Shown: positions 2,103-46,323 of the stretch, in pieces
Position numbering within the stretch: position 1 is the first letter of the stretch
Layout of the letters: every line of letters starts with the position of its first letter
Virus record (IMG/VR): IMGVR_UViG_3300023179_000105
Coordinates: 1 to 64,000 of that record
DNA from: a virus
Reading direction: 5' to 3' (one strand)
Length of the DNA: 64,000 nt
Notes under the pieces: model-generated
What the model was told of the DNA's origin: nothing
The model's database searches: none
Seen by the model: the letters and a program-made list of their open reading frames with translations, nothing else
Program-made: the position numbers and the translations under genes

Positions 2103-4106
2103 TTAGGTCAAAACACCTAAATCTTGAACTTTAATTTGTCCGACCGGTTCCATAGAATCGTAAGATTGGGATAAATTTACACCGAACGCATCCGTCAGAG
2201 AACCACCTGTAGAACCAGGATAAGTTTCTCCTGTAGATAAATCTCCTGTCGGGAATGTAAAGATTGTTGAGTAAATGAATCCTGAACCGGAAGCAGCCGA
2301 AATAGTATTTGCGTAATTATAAGCATTATTAGCAAGAGTATATGCTATATTTGCTTCATTATATGCCGAATTCGCATTTGCTGCTACACCGTAGGCGAAG
2401 GTGTTGACTCCGTTAGCAAAAGCGAATCCGGCCGCTGCATTATATGATATACCATTTGCAAAATCATATGCTAAGTTTGCTGTATAGAAAGCAGATGAAC
2501 CGTTAGCAATTGTGGTGAATGTTGAAATAACAAAAGAATTTACCGAATTTGTAGAAGAATTTGTATATTGTCTGGCATAAGAATTTGCAGAATTTGATGA
2601 TATATCAACATGTGAATTTATAGCAATAGAGTTGTTTGAAATAGTAATATTAAGACCGTGAATATCACTATTTGCAGAATTAGCCAAAGCAAATGCTGCG
2701 GCAGCATTTACAGCCACACCATAAGCAAAAGTATTAACTCCGTTGGCGAAATCGTATGCAGAATTGGCAACTGTATAAGATGAATTAGAGACAACAAAAG
2801 ATGAATTAGAAACCGTATATCCAGCATTAAGTGTATCATATGCTGATTTAATCCAAACTATGGCATTAGCAGAACCTAAGGTTAAGTTAGATGTGTTAAG
2901 GTCGGCAACCAATACGGCATTAACCATATTATTGGCACCAGGTACGAATGTATTATTAGCCGGCTCAGCATCATAACCTTGGAAGAGATAGTATTGTTTA
3001 TTGGTCGCATCTCTTACAAATCCAGTATGAACGTTAGCGCCTGTTGTATTACCGTAATTGGCGATAAAACCTATATCAAGTAAATCGGTACCACTATAAT
3101 TGTTAGCAGCAAGATAAATTAACGAATCACCAACGACCAAGTTATTTGCTAAAATTGTTGTAGCGTTACCTAAGAATGTGAGATTTCCTGTGAGTGAAAG
3201 ATCACCAGTTATTGTTTGTGAAGGTGCTGTTAATTTTAAGAATGTGTTATTGGCATAAGTATTAGAGGCATTTGCCGTAACACCGGCATAATTATTTGCA
3301 GCATTTGTTGATACGTTTGTATAAGCATTAGCACCAATACCAGTATTATATGCCAAAACGTTAGATGAATTCGCTTTATCAAATGCTCCGTTTGCTACAC
3401 CAAAAGCAACGTTGAGCATATCTCTGGTTGGTGCGATTTGTGGTGAAACGTTATTGGCAGCAGCAAATGCTGCGGCAGCATTTACAGCCACACCATAAGC
3501 AAAAGTATTAACTCCGTTGGCAAATCCATATGCAGAGTTCGCAACTGTATATGCAGCATTAGCGGTATTGAAAGATGGTGCAACCTGTGGTGCTACGTTA
3601 TTGGCAGTTCCGAATGCCGCATTTGCAACATCATAAACGGAATTAGCAGCAAAATAAGCAGCCGCAGCATTTGTCACGGCACTATTTGCTCTGTTAAAGG
3701 CAGAATTAGATACACCAAATGCTACATTTAATGTGTCTCTTGTTGGAGCAATTTGTGGTGAAACGTTATTGGCAGCAGCAAAAGCGGCCGCAGCATTTAC
3801 TGCTACACCGTAGGCGAAGGTGTTGACTCCGTTGGCAAATCCGTATGCGGAGTTAGCAACTGTATATGCTGCATTAGCTGTATTGAAAGATGGAGCAACC
3901 TGAGGTGAAACATTATTAGCGGAAGCAAATGCAGCATTTGCAACATCAAAAGCGGTATTGGAAGCAAGTGGACGACCACCTACGGTAGAACCGTCATGAA
4001 CAACTACTGTGTTTTTATCTGTATCAACTGTAATTTCACCAGGAGCGCCAGTAAAAGCAGAATGTTGTGCCGTATTACCTCTTCTAAATTGTACCTGAAC
4101 GGACAT
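2103..4106 (-). CDS. Tail fibre-like protein with tropism-determinant-like N-terminus
   Basis: 667 residues. The N-terminus (MSVQVQFRRGNTAQ, then VVVHDGST near residue 35) matches the neighbouring leftmost gene. Long tracts of A-[YF]-x-x-A-N-x heptads follow, including near-identical internal repeats with AFAAANNVSPQIAPTRD. The shared module VGDSLIYLAANNYSGTD sits in the middle, then more heptads. The C-terminus (YDSMEPVGQIKVQDLG) is distinctive and may be the receptor-facing tip. It starts two bases from the end of the next upstream gene, in a fibre operon read leftwards. A structural fibre is well supported by composition and context; the ligand is unknown. Confidence 0.85.
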   Translation of the reverse strand: MSVQVQFRRGNTAQHSAFTGAPGEITVDTDKNTVVVHDGSTVGGRPLASNTAFDVANAAFASANNVSPQVAPSFNTANAAYTVANSAYGFANGVNTFAYGVAVNAAAAFAAANNVSPQIAPTRDTLNVAFGVSNSAFNRANSAVTNAAAAYFAANSVYDVANAAFGTANNVAPQVAPSFNTANAAYTVANSAYGFANGVNTFAYGVAVNAAAAFAAANNVSPQIAPTRDMLNVAFGVANGAFDKANSSNVLAYNTGIGANAYTNVSTNAANNYAGVTANASNTYANNTFLKLTAPSQTITGDLSLTGNLTFLGNATTILANNLVVGDSLIYLAANNYSGTDLLDIGFIANYGNTTGANVHTGFVRDATNKQYYLFQGYDAEPANNTFVPGANNMVNAVLVADLNTSNLTLGSANAIVWIKSAYDTLNAGYTVSNSSFVVSNSSYTVANSAYDFANGVNTFAYGVAVNAAAAFALANSANSDIHGLNITISNNSIAINSHVDISSNSANSYARQYTNSSTNSVNSFVISTFTTIANGSSAFYTANLAYDFANGISYNAAAGFAFANGVNTFAYGVAANANSAYNEANIAYTLANNAYNYANTISAASGSGFIYSTIFTFPTGDLSTGETYPGSTGGSLTDAFGVNLSQSYDSMEPVGQIKVQDLGVLT
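2846..3243 (-). repeat. Fibre module copy 2
   Basis: Second copy of the shared fibre module (GDSLIYLAANNYSGTDLL, YYLFQGYDAEPANNTF, NAIVWI) inside the 667-residue fibre. It is almost the same as the copies at 651, 6010 and 8317 in bases and residues. Confidence 0.8.
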
Positions 4107-36166: not shown

Positions 36167-36335
36167 CAATCTCCAAAAACAACTCTAAATAGTATTCTGT
36201 TTCCTCATTTAGAGCAAAAACTTCTGTTGAATCCTCATCTATTAAAACCAATTTTTCTTTTCTTGTTCCTATTTTATATCGGCCTTTCACGTAGTCTCTT
36301 AGGATATCTGATGCATTACCGTCTAATAGTCTCAT
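36162..36335 (-). CDS. Small acidic protein downstream of gp59
   Basis: 57 residues (MRLLDGNASDILRDYVKGRY..., ending EETEYYLELFLEIV). Its start overlaps the end of gp59 by 20 bases, as is common in this genome. An ATG with an upstream AAGGAGAA ribosome-binding site supports translation. No family recognised. Confidence 0.65.
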   Translation of the reverse strand: MRLLDGNASDILRDYVKGRYKIGTRKEKLVLIDEDSTEVFALNEETEYYLELFLEIV

Positions 36336-36924
36336 CGATTTTCTCCTTGAGTATATGCTTGAACTTATCCTTGTCGTATTTTATGAATGGTTTATATTTT
36401 CGGATTTTCAACTCAACCTTCGACCATATCGGATCATTATTACCCAAGTATTTATTAAACTTATCAGAGAACCTTATGAAATCATTTAGTATCACCATAC
36501 TTTCTGGAGACAATCTCTTGCCAAGGAAAAAAGAAATAATGAGAGGATACTCACCGTCATTAATAGTAAAAGGCCTTGACAGACCGCCAGAAAAAACTCT
36601 CTCCAACTCGTTGGTAAAGTTATATGCGAGTGCCTGTTTACGAGACTTGTATTCCGTGTAGTTTTTTTCTGCTTCATTTTCTAATAACTCTATAATGTAA
36701 TGTTTATCTTGGATAAAATTGGCAACATAAAAGTCTTTTAGTTCCTCTGCATTATATAGTTTAGCAATCTTATCAAAGAAATGCTTATCTTGTCTTTTCT
36801 CATACGAGTCTTTAGTGGCACGGAGTTTACCATGCATCTTAAAGAAATCATACTTGTCGCTGGTAAAATGGGTACGCAACGCCAAGAATAATAGATAAGC
36901 ACCATAACCGGTGAAATGTTTCAT
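36316..36924 (-). CDS. gp59: DNA helicase loader gp59
   Basis: 202 residues, near T4 gp59. TGYGAYLLFLALRTHFTSDK with YDFFKMHGKLRATKDSYEKR, RQDKHFFDKIAKLYNAEELK, DFYVANFIQDKHYI and the C-terminal WSKVELKIRKYKPFIKYD match gp59. gp59 binds fork DNA and gp32 and loads the gp41 helicase. It sits next to gp33 and close to gp32, its partner, as in T4. It overlaps gp33 by four bases (ATGA). Confidence 0.88.
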   Translation of the reverse strand: MKHFTGYGAYLLFLALRTHFTSDKYDFFKMHGKLRATKDSYEKRQDKHFFDKIAKLYNAEELKDFYVANFIQDKHYIIELLENEAEKNYTEYKSRKQALAYNFTNELERVFSGGLSRPFTINDGEYPLIISFFLGKRLSPESMVILNDFIRFSDKFNKYLGNNDPIWSKVELKIRKYKPFIKYDKDKFKHILKEKIDETIRR

Positions 36925-37170: not shown

Positions 37171-37468
37171 AAAAGGTGCCGGATTCTGTTTCTAGGCTCC
37201 GGCGGGCCCAATGATTATGCTGCTAGAGCAAGATCAAATGATGCAAAGTTATCGTTAGCACCTAACGTTTGCTTTCGGTCTCCTTGAACCCTTACTACGC
37301 TTGTCGATCCTATTTCTGCCCCATCAAAGTAACACGGTTGCCCAAGGTTGCGACCCTATTATGGACTTACTGACGATTTCTATCCCGTATCCGTGTTACC
37401 ATGGTGGAGCAGCCGGGTACCGCCCCCGGGTCCAATACGTCTATGCCGTTCCTCTCAACGACCTAAGC
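37171..37468 (-). ncRNA. ssrA: Circularly permuted (two-piece) tmRNA
   Basis: Minus strand, acceptor piece first. Near 37402-37440: P2 strand ACGTATTG (37440-37433), T-arm CCGGG/CCCGG with loop GGCGGTA, then CTGCTCC, discriminator A and encoded CCA (37404-37402). About 80 bases intervene. The coding piece then starts at 37322 with GGGGCAG, which pairs with CTGCTCC (7 bp, one G-U). AAATAGGATCGA follows, then CAAGCGT (37303-37297), which pairs with the P2 strand (7 bp, one bulged A). The tag frame follows at 37259-37215. A 6-bp stem at 37178-37203 with UUUU after it may end the RNA. This is the permuted arrangement of alphaproteobacteria. Trans-translation would rescue stalled ribosomes and tag the nascent chains for host proteases. 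A late promoter lies just upstream. Confidence 0.93.
37215..37259 (-). other. tmRNA proteolysis tag reading frame
   Basis: GCT at 37259 to TAA at 37217-37215 encodes ANDNFASFDLALAA. With the alanine carried by tmRNA the tag is AANDNFASFDLALAA. The start (AANDNFA) and the end (ALAA) match alphaproteobacterial tags; the LAA end is the ClpXP/ClpAP signal. Confidence 0.92.
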
Positions 37469-37473
37469 AGATA

Positions 37474-37481
37474 TATTTATA
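37474..37481 (-). promoter_or_regulatory. Late promoter of the tmRNA
   Basis: Exact TATAAATA on the minus strand. Transcription would start near 37468, immediately before the acceptor piece of the tmRNA, so the tmRNA is probably made late in infection. Confidence 0.7.
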
Positions 37482-37507
37482 ACATATAATGAGATTTTTG
37501 GCAAGTA

Positions 37508-37618
37508 TTATTGTACCTGATTTTCAAATTCTTCTAATAATGGTGCTCCAACACCACGATGGTCTTTTGAGTTATTAGTTACATGGCCTTGAAGTGTTGT
37601 CCCGTATAAGGCACTCAC
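37508..37618 (-). CDS. Short overlapping frame, possible continuation of the lipoprotein
   Basis: 36 residues from a GTG at 37618 (MSALYGTTLQGHVTNNSKDH, then RGVGAPLLEEFENQVQ), overlapping the lipoprotein in the +1 frame. The residue pattern looks like real protein. It could be a separate overlapping gene or the true C-terminus of the lipoprotein joined by a frameshift. It ends 27 bases before the tmRNA promoter. Confidence 0.4.
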   Translation of the reverse strand: MSALYGTTLQGHVTNNSKDHRGVGAPLLEEFENQVQ

Positions 37619-37694
37619 CGACGGTCGCCACCAGACATCCAGACAAACCCAGACTAAGAAACACCATAGCGATAGCTAGATAAATCTTTTTCAT
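37575..37694 (-). CDS. Small lipoprotein (possible outer-membrane spanin or entericidin-like)
   Basis: 39 residues, MKKIYLAIAMVFLSLGLSGC followed by LVATVGECLIRDN. A two-Lys N-terminus, a hydrophobic core and the lipobox LSGC (Cys at residue 20) make a type II signal peptide. The mature part is only 20 residues. The start overlaps the upstream stop as ATGA, with a GGGAG ribosome-binding site. It could be an o-spanin partner for the coiled-coil membrane protein at 61254-61589, or an exclusion or entericidin-like peptide. Confidence 0.65.
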   Translation of the reverse strand: MKKIYLAIAMVFLSLGLSGCLVATVGECLIRDNTSRPCN

Positions 37695-37843
37695 CTGTAT
37701 TCTCCCATTTCTTTCTTTGCTTCCTTGTTTCGTTCTTTATCACGAAAGTTCTGAATCACACAACATTTACAAGAAAGGAGTTTATACTTCTTTCCTTTAA
37801 GATTGACTTGACCTGCAACGTTTCTAATGTGGAGAGATTTCAT
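37691..37843 (-). CDS. Small basic Cys-rich protein
   Basis: 50 residues (MKSLHIRNVAGQVNLKGKKY, LLSCKCCVIQNFRDKERNKE...). It has the cluster CKCC and a Lys/Glu-rich C-terminal half. Both ends overlap neighbours as ATGA, which argues for translation. A metal-binding role for the cysteines is possible but unproven. Confidence 0.6.
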   Translation of the reverse strand: MKSLHIRNVAGQVNLKGKKYKLLSCKCCVIQNFRDKERNKEAKKEMGEYR

Positions 37844-38520
37844 AACGTATGCTCCAATCTAAATTGTTTAATCTTATTGACTAACTCTGGTATATACTCA
37901 CTACGTTGTTTCACAAAGACCTGAGGATCTTCGTTATCAACTGATATCAATACTACAATCTGTTTTGCTTTGATACCTGTCATCTCTTCATACATTAGAG
38001 AGTAACAGGTGCATTGTTCAAAGTAGTTTAGGATCCACTCTTCTCTCTTTAACTTTAAAGATGTTTTAAAGTCAATAACAGAAGGTACACCGTCAAACTC
38101 GGCAATACAATCAACTTGACCTGCGAGACCGAGAGTTTCGCTATAGAGCATAGTTTCCAAATAGTGAACATTGTCAATCCTATCAACGATGGGTAACATT
38201 TGTTTGAATGCCATTTTCATATCTGGCATTACATTTTCGTTTAGAAAACTGCTCCGCTCCTGATTAGAGATATAAGACTCCATAAGCGAATGAAATTTTG
38301 TACCTCTTCTACTTGCTCGTCCTGATATCTTGTTCGCTTCTTCTTCCCCCACTTTAGCCCTCCATTTGGCAATGGAGTCTCCTTTGAAATGCGATAAGAA
38401 AGTTGTGACGGATGGTAATTTTTTACCGTTTGGTGAGATGTAGTATCGCTTGCCATTGTATTCTTCTCTTTTCAATTCACATAGGAAATGGTCTTGGTTT
38501 ATATGATTAAAGGTTTTCAA
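37840..38520 (-). CDS. PD-(D/E)XK exonuclease, MGME1/Cas4-like
   Basis: 226 residues from a TTG. KKLPSVTTFLSHF, then RRGTKFHSLME (H77), YLETMLYSETLGLAGQVDCI (E122, D137), SVIDFKTSLK (D150, K152) and a Q-x-x-x-Y motif (FEQCTCYSLMYE) make up the PD-(D/E)XK exonuclease core found in cyanophage T4-like genomes. It probably trims single-stranded DNA during recombination or repair. There is no in-frame ATG near the start. Upstream, a perfect sigma70 promoter overlaps an in-frame ATG that reads 13 codons into a TAG, so the true start is uncertain; the TTG after the TAG is the simplest choice. Confidence 0.82.
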   Translation of the reverse strand: MKTFNHINQDHFLCELKREEYNGKRYYISPNGKKLPSVTTFLSHFKGDSIAKWRAKVGEEEANKISGRASRRGTKFHSLMESYISNQERSSFLNENVMPDMKMAFKQMLPIVDRIDNVHYLETMLYSETLGLAGQVDCIAEFDGVPSVIDFKTSLKLKREEWILNYFEQCTCYSLMYEEMTGIKAKQIVVLISVDNEDPQVFVKQRSEYIPELVNKIKQFRLEHTL

Positions 38521-46016: not shown

Positions 46017-46238
46017 TTACCACCCGAATTTAGCATCTTTGAGATAGCAGTTTGTATGGCGAGTTTTGTCCGCATTTTCCAGATGTAGTAAAGTCCAACC
46101 TTTATGACCTAACCGTGGATTATCACGAATACCAATAATGGTCCAGATTGCTCGGCCAGTACCAAACTTAATCGTATCACCAATTTCAGGATCAGGATAA
46201 TGTTTAAGATTTGCTTTGAATTTAGAAAGACTTGACAT
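46017..46238 (-). CDS. Small beta-barrel-like protein
   Basis: 73 residues from the ATG at 46238 (SKFKANLKHYPDPEIGDTIK, FGTGRAIWTIIGIRDN, GWTLLHLENADKTRHTNCYL). It resembles small SH3-like phage proteins ('GD-x-(I/V)...G-x-W-x-(I/V)-x-GI'). The ribosome-binding site lies in the preceding tiny gene. Unknown function. Confidence 0.62.
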   Translation of the reverse strand: MSSLSKFKANLKHYPDPEIGDTIKFGTGRAIWTIIGIRDNPRLGHKGWTLLHLENADKTRHTNCYLKDAKFGW

Positions 46239-46239
46239 A

Positions 46240-46323
46240 TTAATCCTCATTTGAATTGATTGCGATAAGAGCCAAAGAGATAGGAACAGCGAGTGATACA
46301 ATAAAAACGATTAGTTCGGTCAT
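46240..46323 (-). CDS. Tiny membrane peptide
   Basis: 27 residues (MTELIVFIVSLAVPISLALI, AINSNED). Almost wholly hydrophobic. The start overlaps the upstream stop as ATGA and the stop supplies the ribosome-binding site of the next gene, so it is positioned as a real coupled gene. Confidence 0.5.
   Translation of the reverse strand: MTELIVFIVSLAVPISLALIAINSNED

What the first reader, a model, noticed from the sequence alone, without database searches (positions are those of the whole stretch)
37171..37481. Phage-encoded circularly permuted two-piece tmRNA under a late promoter
The minus strand carries all parts of a permuted tmRNA. The acceptor piece has an encoded CCA. An intervening segment of ~80 bases follows. 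The coding piece begins with GGGGCAG, which pairs with CTGCTCC (7 bp, one G-U). A second 7-bp helix pairs CAAGCGT with ACGTATTG (one bulged A). The tag frame gives AANDNFASFDLALAA. The permuted form belongs to alphaproteobacteria, so the gene was probably taken from such a host. A TATAAATA box places it in late transcription beside gp33. A phage making its own tag RNA late could keep ribosomes working while host RNAs are degraded, or tag chosen proteins for decay. Phage-borne permuted tmRNAs are, to my knowledge, little studied.
Basis: partly seen in the sequence, partly recalled or inferred. Interest (0 to 1): 0.93.

Follow-up and report, generated by a model that had tools for sequence, protein, structure and literature searches.

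The report
Phage-borne two-piece tmRNA, late promoter
A marine T4-like phage carries its own complete two-piece version of the bacterial RNA that frees stuck ribosomes, switched on from a phage promoter; such genes are already known in a few phages, but comparison shows a distinct phage lineage with its own promoters and, in relatives, small protein genes hidden inside the RNA gene.

Summary
Every anatomical claim checks out. The minus strand at 37175-37463 is a complete alphaproteobacterial-type permuted tmRNA: alpha_tmRNA 117.8 bits, tmRNA_permuted 98.9 bits, ARAGORN tag ANDNFASFDLALAA. Six helices, including a 9-bp helix closing the 79-nt intervening segment, show compensatory changes in 13 relatives. 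It is not a first: OM43 phage Melnitz and SAR11 phage Mosig carry ssrA in the same place before gp33. It is a new member of a known kind.

New from comparison: (1) phage permuted tmRNAs form nearly one lineage apart from 165 alphaproteobacterial genes, so recent host capture is unlikely. (2) TATAAATA sits at a fixed place before 63 of 101 viral genes and 0 of 173 host genes; mostly a sigma70 -35 (TTGACA) lies exactly 17 nt upstream, suggesting a shared early/late promoter. The window has TTGCCA there; relatives L123 and L124 keep the box without a -35. (3) In relatives (not the window) the intervening segment carries small protein genes under purifying selection, one of them Pfam DUF6356.

Function (late ribosome rescue and tagging with host SmpB) is inferred.

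The parts
37474..37481 (-). T4-type late promoter box TATAAATA
   Evidence: Exact match; same position upstream of the tmRNA in 63/101 nonredundant viral loci and 0/173 alphaproteobacterial loci
37499..37504 (-). Possible sigma70 -35 element TTGCCA, 17 nt upstream of TATAAATA (5 of 6 to TTGACA)
   Evidence: 5/6 or better at exactly 17 nt in 58/76 viral tmRNA promoters vs 5/148 other TATAAATA boxes. Absent in the close relatives L123 and L124, so uncertain here
37402..37463 (-). tmRNA acceptor piece (5' part of the gene): long-helix strand, T arm, 3' acceptor strand, A73, encoded CCA
   Evidence: RF04321 alignment 37463-37215; helices counted
37413..37429 (-). T arm CCGGG-GGCGGTA-CCCGG with the noncanonical loop of the alphaproteobacterial family
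   Evidence: Identical to the RF01849 consensus
37323..37401 (-). Intervening segment, 79 nt, expected to be removed on maturation; no ORF fills it here
   Evidence: Closing helix GTAACACGG (37399-37391) with CCGTGTTAC (37337-37329); 8 of 9 pairs show compensatory changes, 97.4% paired
37175..37322 (-). tmRNA coding piece (3' part of the gene) from GGGGCAG to the 3' domain
   Evidence: RF01849 match ends at 37175
37215..37259 (-). Tag reading frame ANDNFASFDLALAA plus stop TAA
   Evidence: ARAGORN; the same tag in L010 and L123
36921..37145 (-). gp33-like late-transcription coactivator, first gene downstream
   Evidence: PHROG 254, E=1.2e-19; start codon read from the sequence
36316..36924 (-). 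gp59-like helicase loader
   Evidence: tblastn to T4-like phages; 37% to Melnitz, 70-73% to L124 and L123
34880..35827 (-). gp32-like ssDNA-binding protein
   Evidence: Homologous to the Melnitz ssDNA-binding protein; same order in relatives
37840..38520 (-). PD-(D/E)XK exonuclease, conserved gene upstream of the tmRNA
   Evidence: PHROG 298, E=8e-74; upstream in Melnitz and Mosig

Best explanation
A functional, phage-borne, permuted (two-piece) tmRNA gene of a distinct phage lineage of alphaproteobacterial-type tmRNAs, in a T4-like marine phage. Shown from sequence: complete conserved tRNA-like structure with the alanine identity pair G3-U70 and encoded CCA; intact tag frame ending in a ClpXP-type LAA; covarying helices; fixed place upstream of gp33; late box at a fixed distance. 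Inferred: a single transcript starts near 37470 from the TATAAATA promoter (late sigma gp55 with gp33 and the clamp, possibly also host sigma70). The closing helix folds back. Host RNase P cuts between 37323 and 37322, and the 3' side is trimmed to the CCA ending at 37402. The two pieces stay paired, are charged with alanine, bind host SmpB (no phage smpB found) and EF-Tu, and free ribosomes stalled on truncated mRNAs late in infection; the nascent proteins are tagged for host ClpXP. Transcription probably runs on into gp33.
For: Covariance-model and ARAGORN hits; same gene with the same or a changed tag in L010, L123, L124; compensatory changes in all six helices, e.g. acceptor GGGGCAG/CUGCUCC, GGGCCAG/CUGGUCC, GGGGGUG/CACCUCC with the G-U pair kept; same order nuclease-tmRNA-gp33 in Melnitz, Mosig and many contigs; TATAAATA in 63/101 viral vs 0/173 host upstream regions; in Melnitz the same box stands directly before gp23 and other structural genes; 78 of 97 phage tags end in LAA; no SmpB in 11 phage records, controls positive.
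Against: No RNA or protein data. Some relatives lack TATAAATA (38/101) or have a plain sigma70 promoter (L010: TTGACA-N16-TATAAT), and Mosig has no such box, so late expression is not universal. The contig is a 65.9-kb fragment, so gp55 or smpB elsewhere in the genome cannot be excluded. The host is unknown.
Confidence: 0.88

Rival explanations
1. Selective tagging tool: the phage tmRNA's main role is to tag and recycle host proteins (an idea of Buchholz et al.), not to rescue phage translation.
For: Tag ends in a ClpXP-type LAA; proposed in PMC9004378.
Against: tmRNA acts on stalled ribosomes, not on chosen proteins (general knowledge); a conserved late box argues against a mainly early role; phage proteins would be tagged as well.
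Confidence: 0.15
2. Decoy or inhibitor of host trans-translation, like the CDS-less tmRNA of phage DS6A mentioned in PMC11915505.
For: A phage tmRNA-like RNA that inhibits host tmRNA is on record.
Against: Here the tag frame, resume region, stop and G3-U70 are intact and conserved.
Confidence: 0.06
3. Recent capture of the host's ssrA, possibly a passive passenger.
For: The gene order and T loop are alphaproteobacterial.
Against: Viral genes fall in nearly one clade apart from 165 host genes (4 label changes, shuffled mean 84; window inside a set of 106 viral and 1 host rows with support 96); low scores against the host model; phage-type promoter in place of the host promoter; compensatory evolution.
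Confidence: 0.04
4. Degenerate gene with no function.
For: Reduced 3' domain and low score relative to host genes.
Against: The segment from D loop to tag stop is identical in window, L010 and L123 while the intervening segment and 3' domain differ; covariation.
Confidence: 0.02

Closest known systems
ssrA of Methylophilales phage Melnitz (PMC9004378; MZ577097.1:45984-46436)
   Same: Permuted alphaproteobacterial-type tmRNA between the nuclease and gp33-gp59-gp32; TATAAATA at nearly the same distance; closing helix; tag ANDNYVPVDYALAA
   Different: Melnitz has a glutamine riboswitch (RF01739, 52.8 bits) between tmRNA and gp33, a perfect TTGACA-N17-TATAAATA promoter, and a 142-nt intervening segment with a 54-aa ORF; the window has no riboswitch, TTGCCA as -35, and no such ORF
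SsrA of Pelagibacter phage Mosig EXVC030M (MT647606.1)
   Same: Permuted tmRNA directly upstream of gp33, after the PD-(D/E)XK nuclease
   Different: Different T loop, shorter intervening segment, no TATAAATA upstream
Alphaproteobacterial ssrA (Rfam RF01849), e.g. Caulobacter and SAR11
   Same: Gene order, T loop GGCGGUA, acceptor identity, tag AN...LAA
   Different: Host genes score 143-313 bits, have short intervening segments (median 25 nt, max 82) and never TATAAATA in the upstream window

Membership tests
Permuted tmRNA (RF01849 / RF04321) | Covariance-model score above the gathering cut-off | tested here: met
   117.8 vs 50 bits; 98.9 vs 47 bits
Permuted tmRNA (RF01849 / RF04321) | Acceptor piece precedes coding piece, joined by an intervening segment | tested here: met
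   37463-37402, 37401-37323, 37322-37175
Permuted tmRNA (RF01849 / RF04321) | 7-bp acceptor stem with G3-U70 and A73, the alanine identity (general knowledge) | tested here: met
   7/7 pairs; U-G pair in 13/13 relatives
Permuted tmRNA (RF01849 / RF04321) | Tag reading frame with resume codon and stop, ending in a degron | tested here: met
   ANDNFASFDLALAA-stop
Permuted tmRNA (RF01849 / RF04321) | Processing into two paired RNAs | not testable with these tools
   Closing helix conserved by covariation, no RNA data
Permuted tmRNA (RF01849 / RF04321) | Works with SmpB | not testable with these tools
   No SmpB in the phage record; host SmpB assumed
T4-type late promoter | TATAAATA box at a fixed distance from the transcript | tested here: met
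   37474-37481; position conserved in relatives. Start site itself not measured
T4-type late promoter | Phage encodes gp33 and gp55 | tested here: inconclusive
   gp33 found; gp55 not sought in this fragment; Melnitz has an annotated late sigma factor
Melnitz/Mosig ssrA-gp33 arrangement | nuclease-tmRNA-gp33 order | tested here: met
Melnitz/Mosig ssrA-gp33 arrangement | Glutamine riboswitch between tmRNA and gp33 (Melnitz only) | tested here: not met
   No RF01739 match at gathering score in the window; 52.8 bits in Melnitz

The most novel reading that the evidence does not exclude
Phage permuted tmRNA genes are not borrowed housekeeping genes but an old phage-specific module. Its promoters merge a host sigma70 -35 with a T4-late TATAAATA, so the RNA is made early and late. 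Its intervening segment serves as a cargo site for small protein genes (DUF6356, 65-aa, 54-aa and 45-aa families), several of which end on the UAG inside the tmRNA's own 5' piece, so cleavage would make their message nonstop and feed it to the same tmRNA. The window would be a cargo-free member.
Probability: 0.5. Interest if true: 0.78.

Novelty: new member of a known kind. Interest (0 to 1): 0.55.

Why it matters
Timing and purpose of phage tmRNAs are open: the one published analysis found here postulated early use from an early promoter. The conserved box in front of this and many related genes points to late or dual use and gives a direct test. A stable phage tmRNA lineage means that ribosome rescue is something many marine phages carry with them. 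Small genes hidden in the intervening segment of relatives would be a previously unannotated place where phages keep proteins, present even in the cultured phage Melnitz.

Tried and rejected
Checked whether the 'glutamine riboswitch' in Melnitz was a false match to the tmRNA 3' domain: it is not, it lies just after it and scores 52.8 bits; the window lacks it. Checked the intervening segment of the window for an ORF: none that fills it. A CGUUAG/CUAACG hairpin at the resume codon was considered and dropped, because L124 breaks it. TATAAATA counts alone are uninformative. Many loci first seemed tagless; this was my pattern, not the genes. The first version of the promoter control was miscoded and was rerun. 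The consensus scan found no sigma70 promoter upstream of the tmRNA because it demands T at the last -10 position. Single short proteins (under 48 aa) could not be used for collection scans; alignments were used instead.

Full report
OBSERVATION. The window is all but 1.9 kb of a 65,861-base virus record of IMG/VR. It is T4-like: gp33, gp59, gp32, PhoH, baseplate wedge, gp2-like end protector. On the minus strand ARAGORN finds one gene, a permuted tmRNA with tag ANDNFASFDLALAA. Rfam gives alpha_tmRNA at 37508-37175 (117.8 bits, E=1.7e-31) and tmRNA_permuted at 37463-37215 (98.9 bits, E=4.9e-18).

STRUCTURE UNDER SELECTION. Thirteen sequences (window and relatives, nearly all syntenic) were aligned and six named helices counted: 94.9% of cells paired, 23 of 36 pairs changed on both sides, covariation score 0.473 against 0.194 in shuffles and at most 0.089 in slid controls. 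The acceptor stem and T arm are paired in every sequence. A 9-bp helix that closes the intervening segment right after CCA is paired in 97.4% of cells, with double changes in 8 of 9 pairs. It places both cleavage sites at the base of one long hairpin, which fits tRNA-type processing (inference). In window, L010 and L123 the stretch from D loop to tag stop is identical, while the intervening segment and the 3' domain differ.

SURROUNDINGS AND RELATIVES. A pattern for the alphaproteobacterial T arm plus CTCCACCA end gave at least 120 viral contigs. Of 41 records tested (38 from the pattern, two found through gp59, and Melnitz) 40 have an alpha_tmRNA match. Many carry the order nuclease-tmRNA-gp33-gp59-gp32, as do cultured phages Melnitz and, with thyX between gp33 and gp59, Mosig. 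In Melnitz a glutamine riboswitch lies between tmRNA and gp33; the window has none.

ORIGIN. A tree of 273 genes (108 viral including the window, 137 alphaproteobacterial, 28 SAR11) needs only 4 changes of the viral label (shuffled mean 84). The window lies with L010, L123 and L124 (support 99), inside a set of 106 viral and one poorly filled bacterial row (support 96). Viral genes mostly score 67-142 bits against alpha_tmRNA (one exception, L031, is bacterial-like at 301), while 92 genomes score 143-313. The ultimate source is plausibly alphaproteobacterial, but capture is old. The alignment is short (249 columns) and the tree was made by FastTree, so details of branching should not be trusted.

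PROMOTER. TATAAATA occurs 30-70 nt before the conserved GGAC (nearly always 33-50) in 63 of 101 nonredundant viral loci, and in 0 of 115 genome loci found with the same pattern (Fisher 4e-28), nor in 58 further genomes. In Melnitz the same box stands directly before gp23 and many other structural genes, so it is the late box of this group. In 58 of 76 such tmRNA promoters TTGACA (at least 5/6) lies exactly 17 nt upstream, against 5 of 148 other TATAAATA boxes in the same contigs (Fisher 2e-31). The simplest reading is one promoter read by host sigma70 and later by the phage late machinery. The window has TTGCCA at that place. L123 and L124 keep the box without a -35, and L010 has TTGACA-N16-TATAAT followed by AAATA. 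So in the window's own clade early use is uncertain.

TAG. Of 97 viral tags parsed, 78 end in LAA; most start AN. SAR11 tags are mostly 9 aa (ANDELALAA and similar), unlike the window's 14. No SmpB in 11 phage records, so host SmpB is assumed.

GENES INSIDE THE INTERVENING SEGMENT OF RELATIVES. Viral intervening segments are longer (median 70 nt) than bacterial ones (median 25, max 82; p=3e-21). Of 24 nonredundant segments of at least 100 nt, 12 hold an ATG ORF covering at least 70%, against a mean of 1.8 and a maximum of 7 in 500 shuffles. One is a member of Pfam DUF6356 (E=5e-12): 49 viral contigs encode it, 7 with both tmRNA pieces recognised around it plus 4 with the CCA side, the rest elsewhere. 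The tmRNA_permuted model spans it independently. Synonymous change far exceeds nonsynonymous (0.66-0.80 vs 0.07-0.12 per site), and AGGA-type ribosome sites precede the ATG. Families of 65, 54 (Melnitz, record 46096-46260) and 45 aa were also recovered in several contigs each. The 65-aa family and one 45-aa family end on the UAG in the tmRNA's GAAAUAG, beyond the inferred RNase P site. The 2025 tmRNA database paper mentions a tRNA and a repeat in intervening sequences; my paper searches found no report of protein genes there, but the library holds open-licence papers only. The window has no such gene.

FUNCTION. Shown: an intact, selected, phage-type gene with a late box. Inferred: transcription from that box, two-piece maturation, alanylation, SmpB-dependent rescue of ribosomes stalled on broken mRNAs late in infection, ClpXP-directed tagging. 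Not shown: any RNA, charging or tagging.

VERDICT. A real and well-described feature, a new member of a known kind (Melnitz/Mosig-type phage ssrA), with comparative results that sharpen its timing and origin and open a new question in its relatives.

Noticed in passing
L035, L080, L250-L255, L257, L262, L265, L267, L290: A DUF6356 protein gene (63-69 aa) nested in the intervening segment of a permuted phage tmRNA, with ribosome site and strong purifying selection; free-standing relatives elsewhere in phages.
   Followed up: yes
L099/L246-L248 (65 aa), L036/L082/L112/L307-L316 (45 aa), L011/L037/L299-L301 (45 aa), L002 and L320-L337 (54 aa), L018, L070/L081, L086: Further unrelated small ORFs filling the intervening segment of phage tmRNAs; several stop on the UAG inside the tmRNA 5' piece.
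   Followed up: partly
L265 and L267 (records G047, G048): tmRNA_permuted match of 588 nt, an unusually long gene with DUF6356 inside and room for more.
   Followed up: no
L032, L060, L067 and L034, L039, L109, L122: Unusually long tmRNA tags of 29 and 31 residues (e.g. ANDNALSNVTFVDFSAPVTAVNEDFALAA).
   Followed up: no
L027, tmRNA near 3661-3968: Odd tag AKKAHNDNINYSAMKIAA in an otherwise intact phage tmRNA.
   Followed up: no
L124:5451-5762: Close relative of the window whose T arm has a UUCGAC-type loop instead of GGCGGUA, suggesting exchange of the T arm.
   Followed up: no
window 37575-37694, minus strand: Small ORF MKKIYLAIAMVFLSLGLSGCLVATVGECLIRDNTSRPCN with a lipobox (LSGC), perhaps a spanin-like lipoprotein.
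   Followed up: no
MZ577097.1 46000 and 12156: In Melnitz only two TATAAATA boxes, of 22 on its plus strand, have a TTGAC -35 at 17 nt: the tmRNA promoter and one other.
   Followed up: no
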